DNA of 64,000 nt from Diadema setosum (lineage: Eukaryota; Echinodermata; Echinoidea; Diadematoida; Diadematidae): assembly GCA_033980235.1 (NCBI GenBank), contig CM067070.1, forward strand, positions 1,444,478 to 1,508,477. The letters run 5' to 3'. A program made the translations under genes and the position numbers. A model generated the notes under the pieces. It was not told the origin of the DNA, did not search any database, and saw only the letters and a list, made by a program, of their open reading frames with translations. This document shows, one piece after another, positions 1,187-64,000 of the stretch (position 1 is its first letter; each line of letters opens with the position of its first letter).

Positions 1187-1875
1187 GTGACCGTGCACCT
1201 CAAAACGAACATAAAGTCGCACACACTGATTTTGCGTGAGGACTGAAAATAAGTGAAATGGGTCAACCTAGCCGAACTTGATTTTTTCATATTTTCTGAA
1301 AGAGCGGGTCTTCTTTTACATTATGCTAAAATTTGGTATCATAAAACGGGCGGGAAAGTGTGTTTTTTTAGCAGTTTATCTCTAACATTTTTGGTAGAAT
1401 AGTGTGATTAGGTGTGTCTTTAGAATCCCTTTTTCATTTCTGAAAAACCTTGTCCACACTCTTCACTTTCAACTCTTATAACTTTTGACAGGATAGTGCT
1501 ACTGCTTTGAAAGTTGGCATTGATTATGGACAGAATGTGTTAATGAGGCATGCTTAATTTCAGTTTAATCTTATAATCCCTTCATTGTTGTTACTCCGGT
1601 GGTTTACTTCCTGTTTTTTGTCCCATTCATCGCACAGCCAGCAGGGTTTGGTAAAGATTAAGCGCTTGAATAGACACTGTACTTCAGAGCCTCTTTTCTC
1701 AGTTCACACTTTTCCTGAGTTTGTGCTTTCTTTCCAATATTTAAATAGGTTAATAGAGTCCATTTGATTTGAGTTATACATCATTTTAAAGCTTAAAGTC
1801 TGCTCTTTCAGAATATGGTCTTAACTAAAAATTCATGTCTGGCGACTTTTTGTTTGTTTTGAGGTGCAGTGTCAC
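1187..1875. mobile_element. MITE family A, copy 1 (GTGAC-ended, 689 bp)
   Basis: The ends are inverted: GTGACCGTGCACCTCAAAAC at the left, and at the right the complement of a sequence ending GTTTTGAGGTGCAGTGTCAC. A 4-bp duplication AAAT flanks it (1183-1186 and 1876-1879). The opposite arm of the surrounding foldback carries the same site without the insert and with a single AAAT near 3400, so the boundaries are directly shown. It has no coding capacity. Other copies are at 16542-17192, 18900-20522 and 51655-52544. Confidence 0.88.
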
Positions 1876-2120
1876 AAATAATGTATGATTTTTTTTATTA
1901 GTACCATTAAAGCAAGATATACATTTCCTTTAAAGACAGTTGTCTACGTAATTCAGCAATCATGGTTGGGAAGTTATTTAACCACTCCTTGTCAGCATTT
2001 TGTGTGGTGAATGTTGATGTTACACCCATGTATTTTCTCTGTAGACCGAAAGGTTTGGATTGTGCTAAGTCGGTGTAAAAGTTAATTCTGTCTTGCATTG
2101 TAAGTTTGTCTTTGTCATTG

Positions 2121-3145
2121 AATTGCAGCTTTCATACTATAGCAATGTAACATTTTGTGATTGAATTGTGAATAGATTGTCCTGATCCTTATATTGACAG
2201 CAAAAACGGATTTGATATCGGGCAAGAAAGACTTGACTCGAATTTTGGCCATTTTCGAGTCTAGACTCGATAATGGCAAAAGTTCGAGTTTCAACTTGAA
2301 TTGCAGCTTTCCTACTATAGCAATGTAACGTTTTGTGATTGAATTTTGAATGGATTGTCCTGATCTTTATATTGACAGCGAAAAAGGATTTGAAATTGGG
2401 CAAGAAAGACTTAACTCGAATTTTGGCCATTTTCGAGTCTAAACTCGAAAATGGCAAAAGTTCGAGTTTCAACTTTGTCATTGAATCGCAGCTTTCCTAC
2501 TATAGCAATGTAATATTTTGTGATTGAATTGTGAATAGATTGCCCTGATCTTTATATTGACAGCGAAAAAGGATTTGAAATTGGGCAAGGAAGACTTAAC
2601 TCGAATTTTGGCCATTTTCGAGTCTAGACTCGAAAATGGCAAAAGTTCGAGTTTCAACTTTGTCATTGAATCGCAGCTTTCCTACTATAGGAATGTAATA
2701 TTTCGTGATTGAATTGTGAATAGATTTCCCTGATCTTTATATTGACAGTGAAAAAGGATTTGAAATTGGGCAAGAAAGACTTAACTCGAATTTTGGCCAT
2801 TTTCGAGTCTAGACTCGAAAATGGCAAAAGTTCGAGTTTCAACTTTGTCATTGAATTGCAGCTTTCCTACTATAGCAATGTAATATTTTGTGATTGAATT
2901 GTGAATAGATTGTCCTGATCTATATATTGGCAGCAAAAACGGATTTGATATCGGGCAAGAAAGACTTGACTCGAATTTTGGCCATTTTCGAGTCTAAACT
3001 CGAAAATGGCCAAAATTCGAGTCAAGTCTTTCTTGCCCAATAACAAATCCGTTTTCGATGCCAATATAAAGATCAGGACAATCTATTCACAATTCAACCC
3101 GCACAAAATGTTACATTGTTATAGTAGGAAAGCTACAATTCAATG
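2121..3145. repeat. 185-bp tandem repeat array at the foldback centre, last unit inverted
   Basis: Direct units begin at 2121, 2298, 2483, 2668 and 2853, so spacing is 177 then 185, 185 and 185; the first unit lacks a few bases. Each unit carries an internal hairpin built on ACTCGAA/TTCGAGT around TTTTGGCCATTTTCGAG. In the last unit the hairpin becomes the switch point (2995/2996), and the sequence then runs on as the reverse complement to about 3145 and into the right arm. Near-identical 62-residue frames recur on the minus strand simply because the unit repeats; they are not genes. Confidence 0.85.
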
Positions 3146-4613: not shown

Positions 4614-5390
4614 TGACAAAGACCTGCACTCCAAAGACATAAGCAAATTGCCGAACATAAAGAGTATTCTTCCAACCGGCTTCGGGAGGGTTAGCGCGAT
4701 ACAGCTCTATTAGTTTCACCATTCTTTTTCATCTTCGTTTATCCTCTTCTTTTCCTTTTCTTTTTAAAGACGGGTGCTTTATACGCGGCGGTCAAGGTAT
4801 AGCAGCTATATAATCGTGTAACGAAAGGTAGGTCCCGTCTGCGATATCATTACGGCATCGTCAAATCTAAAACATTTGATAACAAGCCTAGAAAATAACA
4901 GTTTGCTTTGTTTTTCGCGAGTAAATTCCCTATGATCAGCACTTCCCCGTCACATGTATACTTAATTTCTCTTCATCAATATCGCGTCATATTATCCGTC
5001 TTTACATGTAACCAGTTTGCACCAGGGCATTTTATTAAATGCAGAATTATGGTTGTATTCCATGTGTCAGGATACAATTGTCTCGACATAATCAAGTAAA
5101 TTAGACGGACCGATGATCTCGTTATAATGACATTCCCCTATTCCATTTTTGTTCTTGCATATGTTAAAGGCTGTACAGTACACTTGTTACGTAACTCAAT
5201 CACAAATTTGATATGGAATTGCAGTAAAAGTGTAATTAAATAACAAAATAGCGCAGATTCCAAAGCTATTGCTGTAAGGCTTGAAGTATTCAATGACAAA
5301 GAAGGAGACACAGGCTCCCGATTTATCGCTGGCTTTACAATTACCAATTAACGAAAATCTGCAACTTAAAATTTGAAATTGAGATTCCAA
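4614..5390. other. No gene seen
   Basis: AT-rich sequence between the visible end of the foldback element and the heptamer satellite. The first tens of bases may still belong to the foldback element. No supported exon, RNA or inverted repeat was found. Confidence 0.5.
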
Positions 5391-5621
5391 ACTCGAAACT
5401 CGAAACTCGATACTCGAAACTCGATACTCGAAACTCGAAACTCGATACTCGAAACTCGATACTCGAAACTCGAAACTCGAAACTCGATACTCGAAACTCG
5501 AAACTCGAAAGTCGAAAGTCGAAAGTCGAAAGTCGATACTCGAAACTCGAAACTCGATACTCGAAACTCGATACTCGAAACTCGATACTCGAAACTCGAA
5601 ACTCGAAACTCGAAACTCGAT
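5391..5621. repeat. Heptanucleotide satellite (ACTCGAA/ACTCGAT)n
   Basis: About 33 uninterrupted copies of a 7-bp unit, mostly ACTCGAA and ACTCGAT, with a short run of AGTCGAA near 5510-5535. Because 7 is not a multiple of 3, several frames stay open on both strands and give heptad-like peptides; these are artefacts. The core ACTCGAA also occurs in the hairpins of the 185-bp array at 2121-3145. Confidence 0.95.
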
Positions 5622-6413: not shown

Positions 6414-6820
6414 TTAAGCGATGTTGATAGCAGCCGTAACAGAAAGGGAAGTGCCAATGAACAAGAGCGCCCCGTTCATTGTGAAGTGCATAGCGCCCCC
6501 TCGAGTCGTGGTCTGCATAGTTGTGCCAGCATCTCCGCCGCGGCTGCCGTCCCCTACGATTGGCGCGGCGACGGTCGTTCCTGCCGCAGGTGGCGCTGTA
6601 GTGGTGCCGATGGCGTTGCAGTTGTCGCCCGTGTCGCACACACACAGACTGCCGCTGACCCCCCTGTACGTCAGACCAAGCGGTTCGAAGATTTCCTTTA
6701 GTGTATCGGCAACGGTGGCTGCGACGAGGGAGGCAAACGTATCGCCAGAGATGCAGAAAGTTCCCTGAAGCCCGCCCTCATCACATCCCAGCTCCCTTCG
6801 AGTAAATGAGATATTGCCCA
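6414..6820 (-). CDS. Ly6-like gene, terminal coding exon
   Basis: The exon opens after a pyrimidine-rich acceptor ending CTCAG and enters in phase 1 (first two bases complete a Leu codon with exon 2). It encodes the second half of the LU domain (cysteines 6-10, ending CVCDTGDNCN), the Thr/Pro/Gly/Ala stalk, and the hydrophobic C-terminal GPI signal. It ends with TAA. A 115-residue frame on the opposite strand over the same bases is a shadow. Confidence 0.8.
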
Positions 6821-9723
6821 CTGAGCGTAGGAAGGAGAAATGTGAAAATAAAAAAAGAACAGGAGCGAAACATAATGTCAGTTGTCATTCGGCAATCCTA
6901 TGTACAATGACTCATCACTGAATGGATGGCTAATCTACGCAAAATGAATCATAGATGTGACAGGTAACACAATCATATCACACAAACGGTCAAATTACAT
7001 TCGAAGGCAATGATGGGATACCAAGAAATTTAAGTCTGACGAGTGCAATATTCCCTAGTGCGCTGTGAAATATAAAAATGGATATTACTTTTGAATAATA
7101 ATATTATTTATTGATATCATCATCAATATAGTAATATCATTCATTAATATATTATACAATTTGTACAATTACTATTTGGAAAAAAAAAAATGTATTGTGA
7201 CTCTATTTGGATATCATTTTGTCATCGCAATAGCACAAAAAACGCACGAAGCAGATTTCACTTATACTTTTGTAACACAAATCCCTCTTCCATAATGTAT
7301 ACATCCCTCTTTCTAATCAATTGCCTTTTTTAATTTATAATACTACCACAAGTTCAGCTACTATTACACTACACTGCATACTGTAGTAGAAACGGGTACT
7401 CACGAGTTTCATGCGTGTAGGTCTGTTCGACCACATTTGCCTTGCACGCTCTCGGCATGGAACAGTTCACTGTCAGCGGAGCATCGCACGATACGGCGTC
7501 CGGATCACTAGGCGGGATAAAGGCGGGGTTAGACGACGTCATCTGAGTACACTGCTGGCATTCTATAGAATCCTCGCCTGATTCGAAACACACAATGAAA
7601 GCCCGGATGTACGTTCATGATAATAAGCCTTTTTTCCAAAGGTTTCACAGGCTGGCCATCATAGCGCAGAAAGATCGTAGTAGCCAAGCCCCTCAGCCGG
7701 AGAGAATAGTACCCCATCCCCTATTTTCTATGAGACATGCAAATGTGACAGCAGCTATTCATGAGCTATAAAAACGATGAATATTTGTAGACGGTTTTGT
7801 TCTCTCTTTATGTATAATTCAGTGTTAGTTTACCATTGTTAGCAAATACGTATGTTTGTTAGTAAGTTAATAGTTGCTTTGTCAGTTAGTTAGTTTGTTA
7901 GTGTTTGTGTGACTGCTTGATATTGATAGCTGCTTATCTGACTTCTTCTCAGCTCTGTTGAGTGGTTATGATTTCCTGCACTAAGCTAAACTAATTATGA
8001 TATTTGGACACTTCTTAGAAGAGCCTCGCTTGGACTTGCCTCTCGCGTGCCTCCCTCGCGCTAGAACTTTGGTTGTTTCTTTTGTAATGACTACATATCG
8101 AGATGGTCTTTGACGAAAGGAATTGTATGCATTGTAATTGTATGATTACATACAAGATATAACATTATACATGGAGATTCTCAGAACAAAAACATATAAA
8201 CTTCCTTTCAAAGTTTTAAATGGAAGGTCATCAAAAAGAAATATTCAGTTTTGTTTCACAAAAAAATAATATTCAATGTTGTGCAATAAATTTCTATTTA
8301 TGACTTAATTGAAAGTGGACATAAAACACTAATAGAAACTTTTTTGAAAAGAAGTACAAAAGCAATGGCATTTTGAGAGCACTGTGAATCGAATATTCTC
8401 AGTGAGCACACTGATGTTCAGTTGTACCGTTTCATTTCTCCATTGTGGGTAGGGCGATTTAAATCAAGTTAATACACAGAATCCCTTCCCCTTAACACTT
8501 TCCTTTATAGAGCTATTTTTCCCTAACACATTGACTCACTATTTAGTCTGTTCAAGGATGGCAATTATTCTTTTCAACAATTGGAATCAAGTACAATTTG
8601 ATTGCGCATTAAGTACATTAAGGCAGATAATTTCAATATGACTTGATACGGGGAGAAAATGAATTGCATACAATGTCCATACAATTCAATAGATTGCACT
8701 GTTATTACCAGAAGGAACCACCTACTAACTAATCTTATTATAAAATGGATACAAGTTTTCTAATAAATGAAAGAAACATGAGACATACAGAAGCAAATTA
8801 TGCAAAGATGGAACACAGATGCCAGTACAAACACATAGTGCATACATGACTCTAGCTGCAAAAGAGCTCTACCGATATATTATGCTAACTTGTATTCTTC
8901 TACTTGTTTTTTTTTTCATAAATTTATGTTAATCTGTCTGCAACTCACTCTGATCGTATGTACATTCTTTGCCTCTCTATCTCAGAACAGCCGTCTGTCC
9001 GTCTTCCAAATAATGTCACACGAATTTCTCACGGACTTTGACGCGCAAATATTCACGAACACAACTGCGGCAAGTCTTGCATCAAGACTAGTGGGGGAAA
9101 AAGCTGATGTATAGTGGAGGAAAAAAGAAAGTTTTTGCAACCTAGAGAACAGCAATGTCAGGGACAGCATCCCCCAACGGGCGCGCCAAAACAAACAGAA
9201 GTCGGGGGACCACAGCGGGGGCGCCATTTTGCCTCAACCGTTGCGAGTCTCAGTGCAGTTATTTATAGCCACAGACATTTCGTGGGTTTCATTCAACTTC
9301 ATTCGAATTTCATTCGATATGTTGCAACACAGAGTCATGAATTGTTTTCATTTCAAGTAGAACGTACCACAACATGAATTTACGTCGAATGAACTCTTTG
9401 TATCAATGTTACTGATGCAACACAGCACTTTTTTCAATCTATGCTGTCAGCAGAAGTGGATATTTTTAAGGAGAGGGGAGATGATTGCAAGGCATGACGA
9501 AATACTAGTAGCCTGGCGTTGGCGCCAGGCTGAATCATCAGCTTACTCATTCACGATCACCGGGCGACCGGGCCGAATGCGAGGGTTATACATCAAAGGA
9601 TGAAGCAGAGTGTCCTTCATTGGTATGACCATGCCCCATGTAATTACTACACAGCGGTCTGTGTGTAGCTCCATGATATGACGCACTTTCTTGGGCAGCT
9701 TTTACCCCGCGGCATCAACCCCT

Positions 9724-37290: not shown

Positions 37291-37398
37291 CCAACAAAAC
37301 CATATAAATGTATTACAAAAATTGAATACAGCGTGTTACGACCAAAATCACTCTGAGAATGATCGCACAAAAGAAACAATCAACTAATGTTCAGGCGG

Positions 37399-37404
37399 TT
37401 TATT
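37399..37404 (-). promoter_or_regulatory. LTR poly(A) signal
   Basis: AATAAA on the element strand; repeated in the 5' LTR at 42154-42159 and kept in copy 2. Confidence 0.6.
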
Positions 37405-38015
37405 AACAGTGATATTGTGGGTACAGACTCGTAATCGGTTTTCACATCAGTACAATAATGATCAATAGAAACAGTTACAAATCAGTCATGAAATCACTTA
37501 CACTTAGTACATGCAATATCCCTGGAAATGTCCAAATACGATGCTTGATGCACAAAGGAATGATCCACGATGCACCGATGAATGATACCTTCGACGTAAA
37601 TCCAGAGGTGCAGGTTACGATAATCCAAGGTATAGATCCGGGGTAAAATCCACGATAGATGTCCACAGTAAAAATGTTCACAGCGAAACGTGTAGAATCC
37701 AGACGTTATGACGACCACGTCCAGTTGATGCGTTGAATGATGATTCACTTTATAATGTCCAGCAAGGAATCCAGCCCGTCACAGCTTTGCCGTAATAATG
37801 TCCGTTGACACTAAAATATGGAGTCTCTCTCCAATGTAGGCAATTAATTCTCTGCAGGCAAAATGTCTCCCAGGCCTTATCTCCACAAACACAGTTTGTA
37901 TAGCAGGTCAGCAGGTAACACAGGACTGACTATAACAAGTCGCTTCAGAGCCAGAAGTGACGTAACTCTCAGAGCAGAGGTGTTGGGTACTCTGCCTACC
38001 TCAGAATTCCTCCTG

Positions 38016-38023
38016 CTTATATA
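38016..38023 (-). promoter_or_regulatory. LTR TATA box
   Basis: TATATAAG on the element strand, about 460 nt from the U3 edge. It is conserved in the active 5' LTR (42772-42779) and in copy 2 (59450-59457). Together with the AATAAA it implies an R region of about 600 nt. Confidence 0.6.
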
Positions 38024-38219
38024 CTATCCATTCACCCCTTTCTAGTACATTCTGTAATTTTCTCCAACCTGGGGCTACATACCTGAACATACTAGCAAGT
38101 CCAAATTCCAGGAATCCTGGATGACTCACTTCCTAATATGTGCATAACATCATTGCCAAAATTAACTACCAATCACCTTGGGCTACAAGGGCAGTGCCTC
38201 ACTCAGCCAGCACTTCCCA

Positions 38220-38380
38220 GAATTTTCTGGAATGGGTTAAATCATTCTAGATTGAGTGAGCTATAATGTATTTCCTGTCACATGCATACATGTACTGTAG
38301 CTACATTGTATACCACATAGAAAATTCTCCACTGATCTGGTCAGCCTGTATGTACTACATCTATATCATATAGAATGTTC
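38220..38380 (-). promoter_or_regulatory. Heat-shock-element-like motifs in U3
   Basis: Three matches to the nGAAnnTTCn heat-shock pattern: GAATTTTCTGGAA (38220-38232, three units), GAAAATTC (38320-38327) and GAATGTTC (38373-38380). All lie upstream of the TATA box on the element strand. The three-unit site is kept in copy 2 at 59655-59667. A TTCCAGGAA palindrome (STAT-like spacing) lies at 38106-38114. Confidence 0.4.
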
Positions 38381-38476
38381 TCCATTAATCTGGTCTACCT
38401 GTGTACATACACATTAAACAACCATGCATACAGCCTTGATACATGTACATAACTACTTGTGTGTACATTTGTGACA

Positions 38477-38485
38477 CCATCCCCC
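38477..38485 (-). other. Polypurine tract
   Basis: GGGGGATGG on the element strand, directly next to the 3' LTR, where plus-strand DNA synthesis would be primed. The same tract is present in copy 2 (59913-59921). Confidence 0.65.
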
Positions 38486-38812
38486 ATGTGAAAAAGAAAG
38501 CCTTGCCGTAGCAAGGGTTTCTTTTACCTTCACAATTTCTCATTGTTATTTACAACGAATGTGAGGTAAAATCCAAATCAAGCAACAATAATCACATACT
38601 ATCACAGGCCTTTTCAACAGCTACATTAATTCCATGTTCTCTTTTCATGGATACCAGTTACATTGATATTGCTTTGATTCTTGAAGCTTATACAATGTAC
38701 AATCATGTCAAACTCAAAGTGCATGTACATCAATAATGGAAAAGCTATACACATATAGGTGATATGCAGGTGAAAACTTTTCATCTTTGTATTCTACTGT
38801 GCTATCCACTGC
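38486..38812 (-). other. Short untranslated tail where RT/RNase H would be expected
   Basis: About 330 bp between the integrase stop codon and the purine tract, with no open frame of note. In Gmr1-like gypsy elements (gag-protease-integrase-RT-RNase H order) the polymerase would follow the integrase here. Copy 2 has the same short tail (59922-60250). Confidence 0.6.
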
Positions 38813-41800
38813 CTATGTCACACCAACTGACTTTCTGTCATAGCACTCTTTCAACATATTGACATGACACATTCTCTGTTCTTTGCGTCTGTCTGGTGTG
38901 CTGATCACATAGTTCACATCATTGAATTTCTTTTTGACACAATATGGGCCACTGAACTTGGCTTTCAGTGGTTCACCTTGTATGGGCAGCAATACAAGAA
39001 CTTTGTCACCTGGTTTGAAAATTCGGGCTTTGGCATTTTTGTCTGCCTTTCTCTTCATAGAGTCTTGTGACACTTTCAAGTGTTCCCTAGCTACCTCACA
39101 AGCCTTTGAAAGCCTCTCACGAAACTTTGACACATAGTCAAGTAGGTGGACTTCATCATCCTCAGTCATGAATTTCTCTTTGACGAGCTTCAGTGGGCCC
39201 CTAACTTCATGACCGTACACCAACTCAAATGGGCTGAAACCCGTCGACTCATTTGGGGAGTCCCTCGTTGCGAACAGCAGGAAAGGGATGCCCTTATCCC
39301 AATCCTCGGGATACTCCTCACAAAATGCCCTAATCATTGTCTTTAGGGTCTGGTTGTAGCGCTCCAACGCACCTTGGGATTGGGGATGATAAGCTGACGA
39401 CTTCAGCTGCTTCACACCCAAACGATACATCACCTCTTGAAATATGCCTGACATGAAATTTGACCCTTGGTCAAACTGCACTTCCTTGGGCAACCCATAC
39501 CTAGTGAAAAACTGCACTAGAGCATCTACCACAGTCTTAGCAGTGATATTTCGCAACGGGATAGCCTCTGGAAACCGTGTAGACATATCCATGATTGTCA
39601 AGAGGTACTTATGACCCGACCTAGTCCTAGGCAAAGGTCCAACACAATCAACTAGAACCCGACTGAATGGTTCTTCAAACGCAGGTATCGGAATCAATGG
39701 CGCCGGCTTCACTGAATGCTGTGGTTTACCAGCCACCTGACATGTGTGACAAGTCTTACAGAACTCAGCCACATCCACATTCAACCCTGGCCAATAGAAA
39801 TGCCTCATGATCCGATCCTTTGTCTTTCTGACGCCTAAATGGCCGCCAACAGGTAACTCGTGAGCAATCCTCAAGATCTCACTGCGGTAACTGGGAGGGA
39901 CAACAACTTGACGGACCACCGTCCAATCCTCATCAGCTGGCCTATGGGGAGGTCTCCACTTCCTCATCAAAATGCCATCTTTGACATAATAGCACTCAGG
40001 GACCTTTTCAGCCTCAGCCTCAGAACACGCCGTCTGAGACAAGCCTTTCAACTCAGAGTCTGCCTGCTGTGCTTCAACCAAGGAAGACTTGCTAAACAGC
40101 CCATCACTGTTAGCCTCGGAGCCTAATACAGCAACCCCATCATTCAAATCCTTGAAAAAGGTTTCTGCCAACCAAACACCGGAATTCTCCTCCACATCAA
40201 CAGAATCCGCATCATCTTGAACAGCTCTACGAGCCTGAGACCTAGTCACAACACAATCTGGGAAAATCCCAGGAAACTCCTCCTGCAACTGCTCAGTTTC
40301 AGCAACCACCACTGGTTTATCCGAAACAACTGGAGACGCAACCACCTTGTCCCCAGCCAAGTCATTCCCCAACAGGAAGTCAATGCCTACCATGGGCAAC
40401 TCAGGAACAACTCCAACAGTGACAGGACCAGAAACTAGGTCACACTTCAAATCCACCCTATACAGTGGTACTGACATATAACTGCCATCAACAGTCTGAA
40501 TCAAGACTTTTGCATTCACTGCACTATCTGGTGGAAAAGTCATACCACCATCCACCATCAACGACTGAGAGGCCACCGTATCCCGCAGGATGACTACTGG
40601 TTTACCTGCCTCACCAGAAGTACATGGGGTCACCTCACCATCAAACAAAAAGCTACGATAGCTCTCATCCACCTGCTTAGTCCTGTCTTTGAACTTGGGA
40701 GATCGACTTTCAATGGCCTGTGTTTCACTGAACGGGACACTATTTTCAGGTAGGACACTTTTTGACATGACAAATCCCATGTCCTTCTTTGTTTTGTTTT
40801 GCAACTTCCAACACTGTGACTTTACATGCCCTGTCTTGTTACAGTGAAAACATTTGATGACATTTGCACTTGTACTGGACCCTTTGTCAGATTGAGGCTT
40901 TGGTGCCGATGAAGTTTCAGAACTCGTGCCTTTTTCAGAACCAGCATTCTTTGGATTGCTCGACTGATTTTTGTCTCTCTTATTTCCAGAGAAATTCCTG
41001 AAAGGTGGTCTGTTGTCATTTCTGTGGGTCAGCTCATACTCATCAGCCATCAAGGCTGCTTTATGCAAACTTGTCACTTTGTGATCATCCAAATGCGACC
41101 TCACACTGAAAGCAACACTCTTTTTGAATTCTTCCAAGAGAACAACCTCACGTAGGTTATCAAAATTCTGATCCACTTTCAGGGACCTGTTCCACCTATC
41201 GAACATCATTTCTTTTTCACGAGCAAACTCAACATGTGTCTGGCCTTTGCGGTACGAATTTCTGAACTTGTGTCTGTACGCCTCTGGCACCAACTCATAA
41301 GCATTCAACACTGCCTTCTTGACTGTAGCATAGTCACGTGATTGCTCTTTTGAGAGAGATGAGTACACATCGGCTGCTTTGCCGACAAACACACTTTGAA
41401 GGAGCATGGGCCAAAATTCCTGTGGCCAGTTCAAACTGTCAGCCACCTTCTCAAATGACACAAAATATGCATCAACTCTGTTTTCTTCAAACTTTGGCAC
41501 CAATCGAATGTTCCTAGCCAAATCAAATTCAGAGGGAGCCCTTTCACGATTTCCAACAGTCTGTGCATGAGTCAATTCCATCTCACGCAATTTCACTTGT
41601 TGCTCCACTTCGAATTTCTTAATTTCCAGTTCCTTTTCTCTCAATTCCATTTCTCTAGCCCTTTGCTCTCTTTCTATTTCTCTTTGTTTTTCCATTTCCA
41701 TTTTAGCAAGCTCAAGCCGTGTTTGATCAGACATTTGAGTTTGATCTAAAATTTTAGTTTCTTCTTTGAGCTCCATGTGACCAGCTACCAAGTCAAGAAT

Positions 41801-41953
41801 TTCTGCCTTTCTTACACCTTGTGGAACATCTACATTCAAATGCTGTGCAATAGCAGTCAAATCACATTTGCGTAAGCTTTGCAAGTCTTTGAGGGACAAA
41901 TCTGTCCTCTGAACAAATGCCTGAACATCCATTGTACTGATTGACATTGTCAC
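38813..41953 (-). CDS. Gag-protease-integrase polyprotein (1046 aa) without reverse transcriptase
   Basis: Order: N-terminal SAP-like helix pair (about 14-55), charged Glu/Arg/Lys coiled coil (about 65-125), gag core (about 140-320), CCHC zinc knuckle CFHCNKTGHVKSQC (about 368-381), retropepsin-like protease (about 450-540), linker, integrase HHCC finger (about 698-740), catalytic core, and a basic C-terminal domain (about 940-1046). The integrase triad is present: Asp in VDCVG (about 768), Asp in DQGSN (about 827) and Glu in ALERY (about 863), with 35 residues between the last two. The protease motif reads DTVA, where a retropepsin expects DT/SG; copy 2 has DTGA. No YxDD-type polymerase motif or RNase H is present, and the linker of about 150 residues between protease and integrase is too short for either. 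The frame is otherwise intact. It would make particles and an integration complex but needs RT from elsewhere. Confidence 0.92.
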   Translation of the reverse strand: MTMSISTMDVQAFVQRTDLSLKDLQSLRKCDLTAIAQHLNVDVPQGVRKAEILDLVAGHMELKEETKILDQTQMSDQTRLELAKMEMEKQREIEREQRAREMELREKELEIKKFEVEQQVKLREMELTHAQTVGNRERAPSEFDLARNIRLVPKFEENRVDAYFVSFEKVADSLNWPQEFWPMLLQSVFVGKAADVYSSLSKEQSRDYATVKKAVLNAYELVPEAYRHKFRNSYRKGQTHVEFAREKEMMFDRWNRSLKVDQNFDNLREVVLLEEFKKSVAFSVRSHLDDHKVTSLHKAALMADEYELTHRNDNRPPFRNFSGNKRDKNQSSNPKNAGSEKGTSSETSSAPKPQSDKGSSTSANVIKCFHCNKTGHVKSQCWKLQNKTKKDMGFVMSKSVLPENSVPFSETQAIESRSPKFKDRTKQVDESYRSFLFDGEVTPCTSGEAGKPVVILRDTVASQSLMVDGGMTFPPDSAVNAKVLIQTVDGSYMSVPLYRVDLKCDLVSGPVTVGVVPELPMVGIDFLLGNDLAGDKVVASPVVSDKPVVVAETEQLQEEFPGIFPDCVVTRSQARRAVQDDADSVDVEENSGVWLAETFFKDLNDGVAVLGSEANSDGLFSKSSLVEAQQADSELKGLSQTACSEAEAEKVPECYYVKDGILMRKWRPPHRPADEDWTVVRQVVVPPSYRSEILRIAHELPVGGHLGVRKTKDRIMRHFYWPGLNVDVAEFCKTCHTCQVAGKPQHSVKPAPLIPIPAFEEPFSRVLVDCVGPLPRTRSGHKYLLTIMDMSTRFPEAIPLRNITAKTVVDALVQFFTRYGLPKEVQFDQGSNFMSGIFQEVMYRLGVKQLKSSAYHPQSQGALERYNQTLKTMIRAFCEEYPEDWDKGIPFLLFATRDSPNESTGFSPFELVYGHEVRGPLKLVKEKFMTEDDEVHLLDYVSKFRERLSKACEVAREHLKVSQDSMKRKADKNAKARIFKPGDKVLVLLPIQGEPLKAKFSGPYCVKKKFNDVNYVISTPDRRKEQRMCHVNMLKECYDRKSVGVT

Positions 41954-42066
41954 AATGTATTACACACAATGTACAATTGAACAATCAACTCAACTAGTAT
42001 TTTGTCTGTACCAATATTCTGGCTTCCGGAACGTTCCAAATTCTAAGTTTGGCTTTAAATTCACTT

Positions 42067-42084
42067 CTCGGACACAAGCCCCCA
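42067..42084 (-). other. Primer-binding-like site, tRNA-Pro type, with a 2-nt insertion
   Basis: Four nt downstream of the 5' LTR on the element strand: TGGGGGCTTGTGTCCG. Copy 2 reads TGGGGGCTTGTCCGCGA, close to the tRNA-Pro-complementary site used by gammaretroviruses (TGGGGGCTCGTCCGGGAT). Copy 1 has an extra GT. Confidence 0.5.
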
Positions 42085-42088
42085 ATTT

Positions 42089-43232
42089 TGTTACGACCAA
42101 AATCACTCTGAGAATGATCGCACAAAAGAAACAATCAACTAATGTTCAGGCGGTTTATTAACAGTGATATTGTGGGTACAGACTCGTAATCGGTTTTCAC
42201 ATCAGTACAATAATGATCAATAGAAACAGTTACAAATCAGTAATGAAATCACTTACACTTAGTACATGCAATATCCCTGGAAATGTCCAAATACGATGCT
42301 TGATGCACAAAGGAATGATCCACGATGCACCGATGAATGATACCTTCGACGTAAATCCAGAGGTGCAGGTTACGATAATCCAAGGTATAGATCCGGGGTA
42401 AAATCCACGATAGATGTCCACAGTAAAAATGTTCACAGCGAAACGTGTAGAATCCAGACGTTATTACGACCACGTCCAGTTGATGCGTTGAATGATGATT
42501 CACTTTATAATGTCCAGCAAGGAATCCAGCCCGTCACAGCTTTGCCGTAATAATGTCCGTTGACACTAAAATATGGAGTCTCTCTCCAATGTAGGCAAAT
42601 TAATTCTCTGCAGGCAAAATGTCTCCCAGGCCTTATCTCCACAAACACAGTTTGTATAGCAGGTCAGCAGGTAACACAGGACTGACTATAACAAGTCGCT
42701 TCAGAGCCAGAAGTGACGTAACTCTCAGAGCAGAGGTGTTGGGTACTCTGCCTACCTCAGAATTCCTCCTGCTTATATACTATCCATTCACCCCTTTCTA
42801 GTACATTCTGTAATTTTCTCCAACCTGGGGCTACATACCTGAACATACTAGCAAGTCCAAATTCCAGGAATCCTGGATGACTCACTTCCTAATATGTGCA
42901 TAACATCATTGCCAAAATTAACTACCAATCACCTTGGGCTACAAGGGCAGTGCCTCACTCAGCCAGCACTTCCCAGAATTTTCTGGAATGGGTTAAATCA
43001 TTCTAGATTGAGTGAGCTATAATGTATTTCCTGTCACATGCATACATGTACTGTAGCTACATTGTATACCACATAGAAAATTCTCCACTGATCTGGTCAG
43101 CCTGTATGTACTACATCTATATCATATAGAATGTTCTCCATTAATCTGGTCTACCTGTGTACATACACATTAAACAACCATGCATACAGCCTTGATACAT
43201 GTACATAACTACTTGTGTGTACATTTGTGACA
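42089..43232 (-). repeat. 5' LTR of gypsy copy 1
   Basis: 1144 bp, about 99.8% identical to 37334-38476. On the element strand it starts at 43232 (TGTCACAAATG) and ends at 42089. It contains the same TATA (42772-42779), AATAAA (42154-42159) and heat-shock-like motifs (for example 42976-42988). Confidence 0.93.
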
Positions 43233-43745
43233 AGCGCATAAATGTCATCATATAAAGTAAAGGATAAATTTACAGAAAACTTGTAGGAAAATGTTGGAAA
43301 TGGGGAGGAATGCTAAAAAGCTGAGCTTGTAGGCCTTTATTCCTTGTTATGTCACAAGGCATTTCTGGAATATTGAATTTCCCTCTATCTGATGATGGAC
43401 TTGAATATTGTAAAATGTTTAAAAATGGCGCTTACTTCGTTTTGTTATAAAACTCTACATTTTTCGTTATTGTTGCCCTAAAGAGGCATCATGGATCATT
43501 CAAGTATTCTAATCCAGCGATGACAGGCACAAGGATTAAACCAACATTTTGAAAAATCATACCTTTGAGCGTTTTTTTTTTGTTTTGTTCTTTAAAACGT
43601 CAGTGATTATAATAATGCAGTACTGATAAACCTGTTGTGTATTCTCTATACCCCCCCCCCCCCCACCCCCGATGCCTTTCTCATACGAGCCTCTCTCTCT
43701 CTCCCTCTCTCATAGTTTGTACTCTACTCATCTCAGTTTTTGGAG
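43233..43745. other. No gene seen
   Basis: Begins with the AGCG target duplication. C-tract near 43650-43666 and a (CT)n run near 43690. Confidence 0.4.
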
Positions 43746-57225: not shown

Positions 57226-58454
57226 TATCGGTGAAATATGACACTGATTATAATACGTGTGAGAGGATAGTATAGCTATATAACGCTGTTCATTACGCTC
57301 TGTAGCCCTACTCAAACAACGGTTGGTTGGTTGGGGAAAAGGGTGAAGTCAATTTGTATTATTTCATCGCTTGACTGCTGCATCGTGGTGTTCAGTTCAA
57401 GTGAAATCGAGCCTTTTTATTGTGAAAATTAGTGTCTCCGCAGATGGTAGACACGCACTTTGGGGCGCATCCAGAAATTCCGTAAAGGGGGCGGGGGTTA
57501 AAGGAAAAAAATTTAGTTCACTGAAAGAAACCAAAAAAAAAAAAAAATCAATTTAAAAAAAAAAGGCCCCGGTGCATTTTTCCTTTCTCGCGCCACTTCC
57601 GGCTTTCATTGGCCGCGGCGCAATGTTCTGGTGCCACTACAATCGGCTGACACAGATGGTTTCTTTGAAGAGATAATGGGGGCGCATGTGCTCCCTTTCA
57701 TCTTTATTCTTTCCATTTCTTTCATAAAAAATAATAATAATAATAATGATAAAGGGGACGTCAACGCCTCCTCTCCCCTTGATCCGCCACGGTACTCTAG
57801 GGTTTTCAATCACTTGAATGTATACATCCATGCTTCTTTCCCACGGCGCATTCAACAATGCGAAAAAGAAAGGTACACGGTTATGAACGTAATCATCCAT
57901 TCATATGGCGGATATGTTTGTCTTTAAAATAAAAAAAAGGATCTACCGGTTAGCTTCTGTTGTTGTTTTCTTAAAGACGATTTTTTTTTTCCTCTTGATG
58001 TTTATTGATTTCATACAAATCATTCATAAATGAGCAGCTATTCATTTGAATGATAAGCTATTCATTTAAATAGTAAGTGATCATCTGACAGTTGTTTTTT
58101 TTTGTGTGTGTTTTTTTTTTGGTGTGTGTGTGCGTGTGTGCGTGTTTGTGTGCGTGTATGTGTGTGTGTGCTTTCGAGGGCGCTGTATTGCCTGTGTACC
58201 TCTCAAAACTTGCTCTCCGAATTTCCCGAAAATGGAGTTTTTTTTTTTTTTTTTTTTTTTTTTTATTTTACTTTGCATTTTCCAGTGTAGTGTACACTTA
58301 ATGACCATTTTTAGCATTTTCTTTTTCTTTTGATTTACTGTAATGTTCTTCTTGGCAAAATAATTCAGGCTGAGGTGGATCGCTTGCAGTACAGAATGCT
58401 GGCGCTAGACTTACTTTCCATGCTCTTTCACGTTCTCATGCCACTCCTCTATAC
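57226..58454. other. No gene seen; simple repeats
   Basis: (AAT)n near 57728-57747, (TG)n-rich tract at 58100-58170 and a poly-T run at about 58238-58264. No supported exon. Confidence 0.4.
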
Positions 58455-58743
58455 GTCAACTCCACTGGGTGCCAGTCAAAGCAAGAATATCCTTCAAGGT
58501 TCTCCTACTGGTCTACAAGGTAGTCAACAAAAGAGCTCCAGAATCATTGGGGAGTGTCTGGCACGATACTCTCACTCTAGGTATACTCGTCTTTCATCAT
58601 CAGGTACCTTCACTCAACGCGCGAACAAACTACCTGGTGATGCAGGTCTCTCCTCTAATGCTCCCAGGCTGTGGAAAAAGCTCCCTCCTCTCCTGAAATT
58701 ATCACCAACACTGGATTACTTCAAACAAAATTTGAAGACCTAA
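58455..58743 (+). pseudogene. LINE (non-LTR retrotransposon) polymerase C-terminal fragment
   Basis: First frame reads LHWVPVKARISFKVLLL then YKVVNKRAPESL; after a one-base shift near 58548 the second frame reads GECLARYSHSRYTR, APRLWKKLPPLL and FKQNLKT before a stop. LPV(K/R)xRIxFK...LVYK...APxYL and APRLWNxLP...FKxxLKT are hallmarks of the end of CR1/L2/Jockey-type LINE ORF2. Upstream polymerase is absent, so this is a 5'-truncated, frameshifted copy. The gypsy element is inserted 31 bp after the stop. Confidence 0.7.
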
Positions 58744-58774: not shown

Positions 58775-59912
58775 TGTTACGACCAAAATCACTCTGAGAA
58801 TGATCGCACAAAAGAAACAATCAACTAATGTTCAGGCGGTTTATTAACAGTGATATTGTGGGTACAGCCTCGTTATCGGTTTTCACATCAGTACAATAAT
58901 GATCAATAGAAACAATACATTACAAATCGGTAATGGAATCACTTGCATATTTTGTTATCAAGTAATCCTTTGAAAATGTTCAGATACGATGGTCGATGCA
59001 CCGATGAATGATCCTTGACGCACCGATGAATGATTCCTCCGACGTAACTCCAAAGGCGCAGGTTATGATAGTCCATGGTATAGATCCGGGGTAAACTCCA
59101 CGATATATGTCCACAGCGAAACGTGTAGAATCCAAACGTTATGACGACCACATCCAGTTGATTCGTTGAATGATGATTCACTTTATAACGTCCAGCAAGG
59201 AATCCAGCCCGTCACAGCTTTGCCGTAATAATGTCCGTTGACACTAAAATATGGAGTCTATCTCCAATGTAGGCAAATTAATTCTCTGCAGGCAAAATGT
59301 CTCCCAGGCCTTATCTCCACAAACACAGTTTGTATAGCAGGTCAGCAGGTAACACAGGACGGACTATAACAAGTCGCTTCAGAGCCAGAAGTGACGTAAC
59401 TCTCAGAGCAGAGGTATTGGGTACTCTGCCTACTGCAGAATTTCTCCAGCTTATATACTATCAATTCACCCCTTTCTAGTACATTCTGTAATTTTCTCCA
59501 ACCTGGGGCCACACACCTGAACATACTAGCAAGTCCAAATTCCAGGAATCCTGGATGACTCACTGTCTAACTATGTGCATAACATAATTGCCAAAATTAA
59601 CTACCAATCACATTGGGCTACAAGGGCAGTGCCTCACTCAGCCAGCACTGCCTAGAATTTTCTGGAATGGGTTAAATCGTTCTAGATTGAGTGAGCTATA
59701 ATGTAATTCCTGTCACATGCATACATGTACTGTAGCTACATTGTATACCATGTAAAAAATTCTCCACTGATCTGGTCAGCCTGTATGTACTATATCTATA
59801 TCATATAGAATGTTCTCCATTATTCTGGTCCACCTGTGTACATACACATTAAAACAACCATGCATACAGCCTTGATACATGTACATAACTACTAGTGTGT
59901 ACATTTGTGACA
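58775..59912 (-). repeat. 3' LTR of gypsy copy 2
   Basis: 1138 bp. It differs from the copy 1 LTR in a block near 58935-59040 and by scattered changes elsewhere. It retains TATATAAG (59457-59450), AATAAA and the three-unit heat-shock-like site (59655-59667), but the GAAAATTC site is mutated. Confidence 0.9.
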
Positions 59913-60250
59913 CCATCCCCCATGGGAAAAAGAAAGCCTTGCCGTGGCAAGGGTTTCTTTTACCTTCACAATTTCTCATTGTTATTTACAATGAATGTGA
60001 GGTAAAATCCAAATCAAGCAACAATAATCATAATTATGCTTTCACATGCCTTTAGAATAGCTTCATTAATTCCATGTTCTCTTTTCATGGATACCAGTTA
60101 CATTGATATTGCTTGAATTTTCGGAACTTATACAATCATGTCAAACTCAAATTGCATACCGGTACATCAGTAATGGATAAACTAAACACTGTATAATGTG
60201 ATGTGAGGTGAAAACCTTTCACCCTCAACTTCTACTGTGATATCCACTAC

Positions 60251-63200
60251 CTATGTCACACCAACTGACTTTCTGTCATAGCACTCTTTCAACATGCTGA
60301 CATGACACATTCTCTCTTCTTTGAATCTATCTGGTGTGCTGATCACAAAGTTCACATCATTGAGTTTCTTTTTGACACAGTACGGGCCACTGAACTTGGC
60401 TATCAGTGGTTCACCTTGTATGGGCAGCAGTACAAGAACTTTGTCACCTGGTTGGAAAGTTTGAGCTCTGGCATTTTTGTCTGCCTTTCTCTTCATTGAG
60501 TCTTGTGACACTTTCAAGTGTTCCCTAGCTACCTCACAAGCCTTTGAAAGCCCTTCACGAAACTTTGACACATAGTCAAGTAGGTGGACCTCTATCATCC
60601 TCAGTCATGAATTTCTCTTTGATGAGCTTCAGTGGGCCCCTAACTTCATGACCGTACACCAACTCAAATGGGCTGAAACCCGTCGACTCATTTGGGGAGT
60701 CCCTCGTTGCGAACAGCAGGAAAGGGATGCCCTTATCCCAATCCTCGGGATACTCCTCACAAAATGCCTTAATCATTGTCTTTAGGGTCTGGTGGTAGCG
60801 CTCCAACGCACCTTGGGATTGGGGATGATAAGCTGACGACTTCAGCTGCTTCACACCCAAAAGATACATCACCTCTTGAAATATGCCTGACATGAAATTT
60901 GACCCTTGGTCAGACTGCACTTCCTTTGGCAACCCATACCTAGTGAAAAACTGCACTAGAGCATCTACCACAGTCTTTGCAGTGATATTTCTTAATGGGA
61001 TAGCCTCTGGAAACCGTGTAGACATATCCATGATTGTCAAGAGGTACTTATGACCTGACCTAGTCCTAGGCAAAGGTCCAACACAGTCGACTAGAACCCG
61101 ACTGAATGGTTCTTCAAACGCAGGTATCGGAATCAATGGCGCCGGCCTCACTGAATGCTGTGGTTTACCAGCCACCTGACATGTGTGACAAGTCTTGCAA
61201 AACTCAGCCACATCCACATTCAACCCTGGCCAATAGAAATGCCTCATGATCCGATCCTTTGTCTTTCTGACGCCTAAATGGCCGCCAACAGGTAACTCGT
61301 GAGCAATCCTCAAAATCTCACCGCGGTAACTAGGAGGGACAACAACTTGACGGACCACCGTCCAATCCTCATCAGCTGGCCTATGGGGAGGTCTCCACTT
61401 CCTCATCAAAATGCCATCTTTGACATAATAGCACTCAGGGACCTTTTCAGCCGCAGCCTCAGAACACGCCGTCTGAGACAAGCCTTTCAACTTAGAGTCT
61501 GCCTGCTGTGCTTCAACCAAGGAAGACTTGCTAAACAGCCCATCACTGTTAGCCTCGGAGCCTAATACAGCAACCCCATCATTCAAATCCTTGAAAAAGG
61601 TTTCTGCCAACCAAACACCGGAATTCTCCTCCACATCACCAGAATCCGCATCATCTTGAACAGCTCTACGAGCCTGAGACCTAGTCACAACACAATCTGG
61701 GAAAATCCCAGGAAACTCCTCCTGCAACTGCTCAGTTTCAGCAACCACCACTGGTTTATCCGAAACAACTGGAGACGCAACCACCTTGTCCCCAGCCAAA
61801 TCATTCCCCAACAGGAAATCAATGCCTACCATGGGCAACTCAGGAACAACTCCAACAGTGACAGGACCAGAAACTAGGTCACACTTCAAATCCACTCTAT
61901 ACAGTGGTACTGACATATAACTGCCATCAACAGTTTGAATCAAGACTTTTGCATTCACTGCACTATCTGGTGGAAAAGTCATACCACCATCCACCATCAA
62001 CGACTGAGAGGCCCCCGTATCCCGCAGGATGACTACTGGCTTACCTGCCTCACCAGAAGTACATGGGGTCACCTCACCATCAAACAAAAAGCTACGATAG
62101 CTCTCATCCACCTGCTTAGTCCTATCTTTGAATTTGGGAGATCGACTTTCATGGCCTGTGTTTCACTGAACGGGACACTATTTTCGGGTAGGACACTTTT
62201 TGACATGACAAATCCCATGTCCTTCTTTGTTTTGTTTTGCAACTTCCAACACTGTGACTTTACATGCCCTGTCTTGTTACAGTGAAAACATTTGATGACA
62301 TTTGCACTTGTACTGGACCCTTTGTCAGATTGAGGCTTTGGTGCCGATGAAGTTTCAGAACTCGTGCCTTTTTCAGAACCAGCGTTCTTTGGATTGCTCG
62401 ATTGAATTTTGTCTCTCTTGTTTCCAGAGAAATTCCTGAAAGGCGGTCTGTTGTCATTTCTGTGGGTCAGCTCATACTCATCAGCCATCAAGGCTGCTTT
62501 ATGCAAACTTGTCACTTTGTGATCATCCAAATGCGACCTCACACTGAAAGCAACACTCTTTTTGAATTCTTCTAAAAGAACAACCTCACGTAGGTTATCA
62601 AAATCCTGATCCACTTTCAGGGATCTGTACCACCTATCGAACATCATTTCTTTTTCACGAGCAAACTCAACATGTGTCTGGCCTGGTTTAGGTACGAATT
62701 TCTGAACTTATGTCTGTACGCCTCTGGCACCAACTCATAAGCATTCAACACTGCCTTCTTGACTGCAGCATAGTCACGTGATTGCTCTTCAGAGAGAGAT
62801 GAGTACACATCGGCGGCTTTGCCGACAAACACACTTTGAAGGAGCAAGGGCCAAAATTCCTGTGGCCATTTCAAACTGTTAGCCACCTTCTCAAATGACA
62901 CAAAATATGCATCAACTCTGTTTTCTTCAAACTTTGGCACCAATCGAATGTTCCCAGCCAAATCAAATTCAGAGGGAGCCCTTTCACGATTTCCAACAGT
63001 CTGTGCATGAGCCATTTCCATCTCACGCAATTTCACTTGTTGCTCCACCTCAAATTTCTTCTGTTCCATTTCAAGTTTCTTCATTTCAATTAAAATTGTT
63101 CTCTTTGTTCTCTTTCCCTCTCTCTCTTTCTAATCTCATCTTCTCTTTCTCCATTTCCATTTGCAATTTAGCAAGCTCAAACCGTGTTTGATCTGACATT

Positions 63201-63454
63201 TGAGCTTGATTTGGAGTGTTAATTTCTTCTTTGAGCTCCATGTGACCAGCTACCAAGTCAAGAATTTCTGCCTTTCTTGTACCTTGTGGAACATCAACAT
63301 TTAAATGCTGTGCAATACCAGTCAAATCACATTTGCGTAACCTTTGCAAATCTTTGAGGGACAAATCTGTCCTCTGAACAAATGCTTGAACATCCATTGT
63401 ACTGATTGACATTGTCACATGTATTACACACAATGTACAATTACTATAGAACAA
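60251..63454 (-). pseudogene. Frameshifted gag-protease-integrase of gypsy copy 2
   Basis: Five frame segments (63454-63086, 63084-62644, 62647-62069, 62111-60576, 60598-60251) correspond in order to the 1046-residue protein of copy 1. Breaks lie in the coiled-coil region (about 63085), in gag (about 62685), after the zinc knuckle (about 62150, one base missing) and in the integrase C-terminal part (about 60593, one base extra). The protease motif is DTGA, as expected for an active retropepsin, and the integrase D, D35E residues are present. As in copy 1, no RT or RNase H is found between protease and integrase or after integrase. Confidence 0.88.
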
Positions 63455-63534
63455 TCAACTCACTGGTATTTTGTCTGTACCAATATTCTGGATTCCGGAA
63501 CGTTCCAAATTCTAAGTTTTGGCTTTAAATTCAC

Positions 63535-63552
63535 TTCGCGGACAAGCCCCCA
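63535..63552 (-). other. Primer-binding site, tRNA-Pro-like
   Basis: TGGGGGCTTGTCCGCGA on the element strand, four nt from the LTR; 15 of 18 positions match the complement of the 3' end of tRNA-Pro. Confidence 0.55.
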
Positions 63553-63556
63553 ATTT

Positions 63557-64000
63557 TGTTACGACCAAAATCACTCTGAGAATGATCGCACAAAAGAAAC
63601 AATCAACTAATGTTCAGGCGATTTATTAACAGTGATATTGTGGGTACAGACTCGTTATCGGTTTTCACATCAGTACAACAATGATCAATAGAAACAATAC
63701 ATTACAAATCGGTAATGGAATCACTTACATATTTTGTTATCAAGTAATCCTTTGAAAATGTTCAGATACGATGTTCGATGCACAGATGAATGATCCTTGA
63801 CGCACCGATGAATGATTCCTCCGACGTAACTCCAAAGGCGCAGGTTATGATAGTCCACGGTATAGATCCGGGGTAAACTCCACGATATATGCCCACAGCG
63901 AAACGTGTAGAATCCAAACGTTATGACGACCACGTCCAGTTGATTCGTTGAATGATGATTCACTTTATAACGTCCAGCAAGGAATCCAGCCCGTCACAGC
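63557..64000 (-). repeat. 5' LTR of gypsy copy 2 (partial)
   Basis: Only the R/U5 side is in the window; it matches 58775-59215 with about ten differences. Confidence 0.88.

What the first reader, a model, noticed from the sequence alone, without database searches (positions are those of the whole stretch)
38477..42088. A recently active gypsy lineage encoding gag, protease and integrase but no reverse transcriptase
Seen: an intact 1046-residue frame holds a CCHC knuckle, a retropepsin region and a full HHCC plus D,D35E integrase. RT and RNase H are absent between protease and integrase and after integrase, and only about 336 bp separate the stop codon from the LTR. Copy 2 (59913-63556) has exactly the same arrangement, so the loss predates both insertions and the RT-less form spread. 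Known: Gmr1-like deuterostome gypsy elements have the order gag-protease-integrase-RT-RNase H, and the protein style here fits that group, so a 3' deletion of RT/RNase H would produce this structure. Inference: it supplies its own particle and integrase and borrows polymerase in trans.
Basis: partly seen in the sequence, partly recalled or inferred. Interest (0 to 1): 0.88.

Follow-up and report, generated by a model that had tools for sequence, protein, structure and literature searches.

The report
Polymerase-less jumping gene in sea urchin
A sea-urchin retrotransposon that makes its own coat protein, protease and integrase but has lost the copying enzyme appears to be copied by, and to keep recombining with, complete sister elements, so the two forms act like two alleles of one gene pool.

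Summary
The element at 37334-43232 (minus strand) has two 1.14-kb LTRs, a 4-bp target duplication and one gag-protease-integrase frame without RT or RNase H. In the window's own genome (886 Mb, probably a sea urchin near Diadema) a 20-base signature of the RT-less junction occurs 185 times. Of 20 further copies fetched, 19 lack RT. The 21 RT-less copies examined share one junction and one stop; 19 of 21 frames are open; 18 of 19 complete LTR pairs differ by 3 bases or fewer. Young complete elements (about 7.4 kb) with related LTRs exist beside them.

The trans-mobilisation reading is strongly supported, with an addition: in the copies sampled, RT-less and RT-plus forms are not differentiated in leader, gag, protease, integrase core and nearly all of the LTR, only within about 0.2-0.3 kb of the deletion. 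The deletion behaves as an old, single-origin allele in a recombining pool, implying co-packaging and template switching.

Corrections: the window copy's protease motif is DTVA, not DTGA; copy 2 is frameshifted. Semi-autonomous elements are known (mouse IAP 1Δ1, wheat Sabrina and Quinta); this is a new variant.

The parts
37334..38476 (-). 3' LTR of copy 1 (TGTCAC...GTAACA on the minus strand)
38477..38487 (-). polypurine tract next to the 3' LTR (ATGGGGGATGG)
   Evidence: read by eye
38477..38812 (-). 3' non-coding tail; its last ~240 bases match the stretch that follows RNase H in RT-plus copies
   Evidence: W1 v L023: 94% over 238 bases
38700..38938 (-). block private to RT-less copies around the deletion: last ~125 bases of the frame, TAG stop, junction (about 38780-38795), first part of the tail
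38813..41947 (-). gag-protease-integrase frame, 1044 aa from its first ATG
41021..41287 (-). SCAN-like capsid domain (residues 223-311 of the 1046)
   Evidence: E 1.5e-6
40811..40858 (-). CCHC zinc knuckle (residues 366-381)
   Evidence: E 0.006, below the curated cut-off
40151..40666 (-). retropepsin region; active-site motif reads DTVA in this copy (codon 460 at 40574-40576)
39731..39901 (-). integrase zinc-binding domain (H2C2)
   Evidence: E 1.3e-20
39383..39670 (-). integrase catalytic core (D,D35E, motif read by eye)
   Evidence: E 1.5e-13
41948..42088 (-). leader with a primer-binding site resembling tRNA-Pro (TGGGGGCTTG...)
   Evidence: the tRNA assignment is recalled
42089..43232 (-). 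5' LTR of copy 1
37330..37333 (.). target-site duplication AGCG, left
43233..43236 (.). target-site duplication AGCG, right
58775..59912 (-). 3' LTR of copy 2
59913..63556 (-). internal region of copy 2: same junction and stop, four frameshifts
63557..64000 (-). 5' LTR of copy 2, cut by the window's end

Best explanation
It is a semi-autonomous Gmr1-type Ty3/gypsy element. It encodes Gag, protease and integrase; the 3' third of the polyprotein (RT and RNase H) was removed once, by a deletion of about 1.5 kb (shown for the copies examined). Its RNA is packed, together with RNA of complete sister elements, into mixed particles; the sisters' RT copies it, and integrase of either source inserts it (inferred). 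During copying the polymerase switches templates, so gag, protease, integrase and LTRs are exchanged between the forms, and only sequence next to the deletion stays private (the pattern is shown; template switching is the inferred cause). The RT-less form is thus an allele of one recombining pool rather than a separate lineage. Its own Gag-PR-IN product is probably used (weaker inference).
For: No RT in the element or in 19 of 20 further copies fetched. One shared junction in 21 of 21 RT-less copies examined. 185 exact genome sites of the junction 20-mer, 0 for the reversed control. LTR pairs of 19 complete RT-less copies: median 0.09% different; target duplications at the exact ends in 16 of 19. 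RT-plus partners: 10 loci with LTRs 91-97% like copy 1's and integrase DNA 97% identical, plus L023; the RT motif YIDD in 11 of 11. Fst about 0 from the leader to frame nt 3015, then 0.70 in nt 3016-3110; on the 3' side 0.56 next to the junction and at most 0.11 beyond. 117 polymorphisms shared and no fixed difference from the leader to nt 2915; linkage decays within 25-50 bp; at least 53 recombination events by the four-gamete rule, 45 without broken copies and CpG sites. The two labels are as mixed as shuffled labels in trees of the LTR (10 changes v 9.3; L021 and L023 sisters at 100/100) and of integrase nt 1967-2915 (11 v 9.4). 19 of 21 RT-less frames open.
Against: No RNA, particle or transposition data. 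Copies were sampled by likeness to the window's frame (RT-less) or to P0002's RT (RT-plus), not at random. Fst before nt 1966 rests on only 3-4 RT-plus rows. Two of 13 windows on the 3' side other than the junction one have low p: Fst 0.045 (p 0.03, the next 110 bases) and 0.112 (p 0.01, inside the LTR). A tree of frame nt 1870-3100, which includes the private end, separates the labels by one branch (97/85); without that end they mix. The four-gamete rule also counts repeated mutation. In the private block pN/pS is 0.27-0.40 v 0.09 in capsid and integrase core; RT-plus copies give 0.25-0.33 there on four variants, so that stretch may be less constrained in both. Residues conserved in relatives changed in RT-less copies there (Arg1023, Tyr1037), so their integrase tail may be weakened. 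As coding regions are exchanged, open frames and low Ka/Ks do not show that RT-less copies need their own proteins. Gene conversion between integrated copies could add to the mixing.
Confidence: 0.86

Rival explanations
1. Recurrent origin: each RT-less copy arises anew from an RT-plus element (splicing or a recurring polymerase jump), so no recombination is needed.
For: It would explain the shared LTR and coding haplotypes. Short similar runs lie at both borders of the deletion (GAAGAGGGAGAAG and GAAGGTGAAAAG, by eye).
Against: The 21 copies examined carry the same private block, which differs from the 11 RT-plus copies (between 11.9%, RT-plus within 0.4%, frame nt 3016-3110) and is itself diverse (6.7%), so it is old. 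No GT...AG intron signal was seen at the borders by eye.
Confidence: 0.05
2. Pure passenger: the RT-less form contributes nothing, and its open frame is a by-product of youth and of recombination with RT-plus copies.
For: Frames are refreshed by exchange; constraint is looser in the private block than in the core; copy 1 with a DTVA protease is a very recent insertion, though the change could postdate insertion.
Against: pN/pS is still below 1 in the private block (0.27-0.40; 28 nonsynonymous v 20 synonymous variants where about 3.7:1 is expected without transition bias; no formal test was made). 19 of 21 frames are open, though the sample was picked by likeness to an open frame.
Confidence: 0.3
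3. A host gene domesticated from a retrotransposon.
For: Open gag-integrase frame without RT.
Against: LTRs, target duplications and 185 dispersed junction sites.
Confidence: 0.01
4. Assembly artefact: RT was dropped by the assembly.
For: Repeats are hard to assemble (general knowledge).
Against: Same junction at 21 loci, and RT-plus copies resolved in the same assembly.
Confidence: 0.01

Closest known systems
Mouse IAP 1Δ1 (passages of PMC6466679 and PMC7411935)
   Same: Deleted subtype of a young LTR family, with a protein-coding frame, requiring proteins in trans from full-length copies, yet responsible for most new IAP insertions; its fusion protein is reported to help in cis.
   Different: An endogenous retrovirus; the 1.9-kb deletion takes part of gag and pol and makes a gag-pol fusion. 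Here gag, protease and integrase stay whole and RT-RNase H is gone, which the integrase-before-RT order permits.
Wheat RLG_Sabrina_SA and RLG_Quinta (passages of PMC9744471 and PMC11302176)
   Same: Gypsy elements that keep Gag (Quinta) or Gag-protease (Sabrina_SA, called semi-autonomous) and rely on an autonomous partner.
   Different: They also lack integrase; Sabrina is described as having hardly any sequence homology with its partner. Here the forms are one family exchanging sequence.
Gmr1-like Ty3/gypsy elements (Goodwin and Poulter 2002, title seen in a reference list)
   Same: Pol order with integrase before RT, found in the RT-plus partner; SCAN-like capsid (SCAN derives from Gag of a Gmr1-like element per a passage of PMC3424704).
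   Different: RT and RNase H absent in this form.
Onsen of Arabidopsis (abstract of PMC5668417)
   Same: High-rate pairwise recombination between family members during transposition, compared with sexual exchange.
   Different: The abstract reports recombination of old with young members, not a coding deletion allele.
BARE1/BARE2 of barley (abstract of PMC3735527)
   Same: One-frame element with a defective subfamily packaged in the partner's particles.
   Different: BARE2 lacks Gag, the opposite loss; BARE1 makes Gag-only RNA by splicing.

Membership tests
Gmr1-like Ty3/gypsy | integrase encoded before RT | tested here: met
   Pfam order in P0002, P0003, P0006, P0010; L023 of the same pool has RT after integrase in one 1552-aa frame. 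The RT-less form keeps only the first part of that order.
Gmr1-like Ty3/gypsy | SCAN-like capsid | tested here: met
   (E 1.5e-6)
Gmr1-like Ty3/gypsy | placement by RT phylogeny | not tested
   no reference Gmr1 sequences at hand
Semi-autonomous LTR retrotransposon | LTR pair, target duplication, PBS and PPT | tested here: met
   (exact-end duplication in 16 of 19 complete RT-less copies; PBS and PPT read by eye in the window's two copies)
Semi-autonomous LTR retrotransposon | lacks an essential enzyme but keeps an open coding frame | tested here: met
   (19 of 21 frames open)
Semi-autonomous LTR retrotransposon | autonomous partner with shared LTR ends, active at the same time | tested here: met
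   L023 has the same termini and an LTR pair differing at 1 of 1151; 10 more RT-plus loci with LTRs 91-97% like the window's. Activity is judged from LTR pairs only, and from one RT-plus copy.
Semi-autonomous LTR retrotransposon | mobilisation in trans shown by experiment | not testable with these tools
   sequence data only
TRIM / LARD (coding-free LTR elements; definition recalled) | no coding capacity | tested here: not met
   1044-aa frame
Mouse IAP 1Δ1 | deletion fusing gag to pol in an endogenous retrovirus | tested here: not met
   gag, protease and integrase regions all retained

The most novel reading that the evidence does not exclude
The RT-less form is a stable, useful allele rather than a parasite. 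In an element that translates everything as one frame, it raises the dose of Gag-protease-integrase over RT, doing by deletion what other elements do by frameshifting or splicing, and the pool keeps both forms while recombination keeps every other region in common.
Probability: 0.28. Interest if true: 0.85.

Novelty: new variant of a known kind. Interest (0 to 1): 0.66.

Why it matters
It is an animal case in which a polymerase-less LTR retrotransposon and its helper can be told apart by one deletion while the rest is exchanged. That makes the genome itself a readout of co-packaging and template switching, and allows tests of whether defective elements pay their way (Gag supply) or only cheat. 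It also shows how the integrase-before-RT order lets one 3' deletion remove only the polymerase.

Tried and rejected
A lineage-only reading (RT-less copies as a clade evolving apart) was my first view after comparing the two window copies (Ka/Ks 0.35 by counting; 0.445 by maximum likelihood, p 4.9e-5). It was dropped when copies from the genome showed no differentiation away from the junction. The Ka/Ks result is kept only as a description.

I first suspected P0001 (1172 aa, no RT domain, from another source) of being the same RT-less form; its tail looks like a degenerate version of the stretch before RT and has a different end, so I set it aside. Of the 120 relatives listed, 32 failed my RT test (no RT stretch of about 120 residues or more; a few keep RNase H or RT fragments); they end at many different points, as broken frames or gene models would, and were not counted as RT-less elements.

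Scans for related DNA in genome contigs and viral contigs found nothing. Pfam missed the protease, so I used a structure model. On contigs C1-C6, of 91 such sites 43 lead to the exact RT-less junction, 31 to a scored RT hit and 17 to neither; one of the 17 is L016, an RT-less copy with a variant junction. 56 exact junctions lie on C1-C6.

Full report
What is there. Copy 1 lies on the minus strand: 5' LTR 43232-42089, leader, one frame 41953-38813, a 336-base tail, 3' LTR 38476-37334, with a 4-bp target duplication AGCG and LTRs that differ at 2 of 1143 sites. Pfam finds a SCAN-like capsid, an H2C2 zinc finger, an rve core and an integrase C-terminal domain; RT and RNase H are absent. The protease region escapes Pfam, but a model of the 172-residue piece (mean pLDDT 71) matches HIV-type proteases (best E 2.3e-5). 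In this copy the active-site triad reads DTV instead of DTG; in an alignment of 35 rows this glycine is nearly invariant, and the other 20 RT-less copies examined read DTGA. Copy 2 has the same layout, runs off the window at 64000, and carries four frameshifts.

Complete relatives. A protein search gave 1889 hits among 7986 scored candidates; among the 120 listed are full polyproteins with the order capsid, integrase, RT, RNase H (P0003, 67% identical over the whole frame; P0002, 86% over 79% of it). The frame's TAG aligns with a glutamine of the closest of these relatives, and likeness to P0001 continues for several residues beyond it, so the stop is most simply a nonsense change, with the RT deletion further 3'.

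The host genome. The window is part of an 886-Mb assembly of 96 contigs. One host frame at 6417-6884 has a single database relative, 95% identical over 88% of it, in Diadema setosum; I infer a sea urchin of or near that genus. Searching with the frame gave 47 matches from 40 scored of 524 candidates, 94-97% identical for the full-length ones other than itself. Of the 20, 19 lack RT and one, L023, has it. L023 is 7433 bp with an internal region 1517 bases longer than copy 1's, a 1552-aa frame and LTRs 90% like copy 1's. An RT-RNase H query gave 99 scored of 2371 candidates, 67 of them with an open-frame length of at least 1500 aa in the tool's table, one of these with a stop inside the match. 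Ten of these loci (L029-L038) have 3' LTRs 91-97% like copy 1's and integrase DNA 97% identical to it.

Origin and number. The 21 RT-less copies examined (19 fetched, two in the window) carry the same junction block and stop. The tail beyond it matches the stretch after RNase H in RT-plus copies (shown for L023 and L029-L033). The 20-mer AGTCAGTTGGTGTKACATAG occurs 185 times in the genome, its reversed control 0 times; an integrase 30-mer common to both forms occurs 291 times. On contigs C1-C6, 43 of 91 such integrase sites lead to the exact RT-less junction, 31 to a scored RT (a capped list) and 17 to neither. By these exact markers RT-less copies are about half of the pool.

Age. Among 19 RT-less copies with both LTRs complete, 4 pairs are identical and 18 differ by at most 3 bases; 16 show a target duplication at the exact ends. 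Yet the junction block is diverse among RT-less copies (6.7% in frame nt 3016-3110, v 0.4% in RT-plus), about as deep as the LTR pool (5.3% and 5.5%). The insertions are recent; the deletion is old.

One pool. In 150-base windows from the leader to frame nt 3015, Fst between RT-less and RT-plus copies lies between -0.11 and 0.05 (lowest permutation p 0.12); in the last 95 bases it is 0.70 (p 0.01) (21 RT-less rows; 3-4 RT-plus rows up to nt 1965 and 11 after that). On the 3' side it is 0.56 beside the junction (p 0.005) and 0.045 in the next 110 bases (p 0.03); of the 11 windows that follow (the last 110 bases before the LTR and the LTR itself) one reaches 0.11 (p 0.01) and the others lie between -0.05 and 0.05 (20 RT-less and 11 RT-plus rows). 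From the leader to nt 2915 there are 117 shared polymorphisms and no fixed difference; among RT-less copies linkage falls from r2 0.20 within 25 bases to 0.05-0.07 beyond, a PHI-like test gives the lowest p that 300 shuffles allow (0.0033), and the four-gamete rule asks for at least 53 recombination events, 50 without the two broken copies and 45 also without CpG sites. In the LTR tree the two labels are as mixed as if shuffled, with sister pairs such as L021 (RT-less) and L023 (RT-plus) at 100/100. A tree of frame nt 1870-3100 does separate the labels by one branch (97/85); it includes the private end, and when only nt 1967-2915 are used the labels mix completely (11 changes against 9.4 for shuffled labels).

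How it works. Shown for the copies sampled: one junction, wide spread, recent insertion, complete partners with related LTRs, and exchange nearly everywhere but at the deletion. From established retrovirus and retrotransposon biology: such exchange is expected when two RNAs in one particle are copied with template switching; the Onsen abstract compares it with sexual exchange. Inferred: RT-less RNA travels in mixed particles and uses the partner's RT. Open: whether its own proteins matter. 19 of 21 frames are open, and pN/pS is about 0.09 in capsid and integrase core, but those regions are exchanged with RT-plus copies, and the sample was picked by likeness to an open frame. In the private block the ratio is 0.27-0.40, with changes at residues conserved in relatives; RT-plus copies give 0.25-0.33 there, on only four variants. 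So there is some constraint, looser than in the core, and no formal test.

Compared with what is known. Mouse IAP 1Δ1 is the nearest functional parallel: a deleted coding subtype that needs proteins in trans and whose product helps in cis (passages). Wheat Quinta keeps Gag and Sabrina_SA Gag-protease (passages). I found no description of a gag-protease-integrase element without RT in the listings of ten full-text searches of the open library; most subscription papers are not held and most listed papers were not opened, so this is weak evidence of novelty. A one-frame element is expected to make RT and Gag in equal amounts; BARE1 makes Gag-only RNA by splicing (abstract). The boldest reading left open is that here the deletion allele does the same job.

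Noticed in passing
window 58315-58740 (+): Two overlapping frames look like the C-terminal part of a LINE (non-LTR) reverse transcriptase; copy 2 sits directly beside it. Judged by eye from the translation.
   Followed up: no
frame nt 166-465 of the element (about 41489-41788 in copy 1): The gag N-terminal coiled-coil stretch is far more variable than the rest (9-16% between copies; pN/pS 0.52 in RT-less, 0.41 in RT-plus copies), with indels.
   Followed up: partly
3' LTR, about 770-990 bases in: A stretch of the LTR is 13-16% diverse among copies while its neighbours are 3-5%.
   Followed up: no
G000:C6:13987187 and 13991899; C7:28574429 and 28579178: Two pairs of RT-less junctions on the same strand lie 4.7 kb apart, the spacing of one internal region plus one LTR, as in tandem elements sharing an LTR.
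   Followed up: no
window 6417-6884 (-): A 156-aa frame whose only listed database relative is an uncharacterised Diadema setosum protein, 95% identical.
   Followed up: partly
window 2110-3022 and 5389-5620: A 185-bp tandem repeat (5 copies) and a 7-bp minisatellite AAACTCG (33 copies).
   Followed up: no
P0020 and P0075: Gypsy polyproteins filed under bacteria (Breoghania sp., Campylobacter sp.): probably animal DNA contaminating bacterial records.
   Followed up: no
P0099, P0067, P0087: Large clusters (1006, 297, 122 members) of related proteins that end soon after integrase; RT-less forms, or frames broken before RT, may be common in other animals.
   Followed up: no
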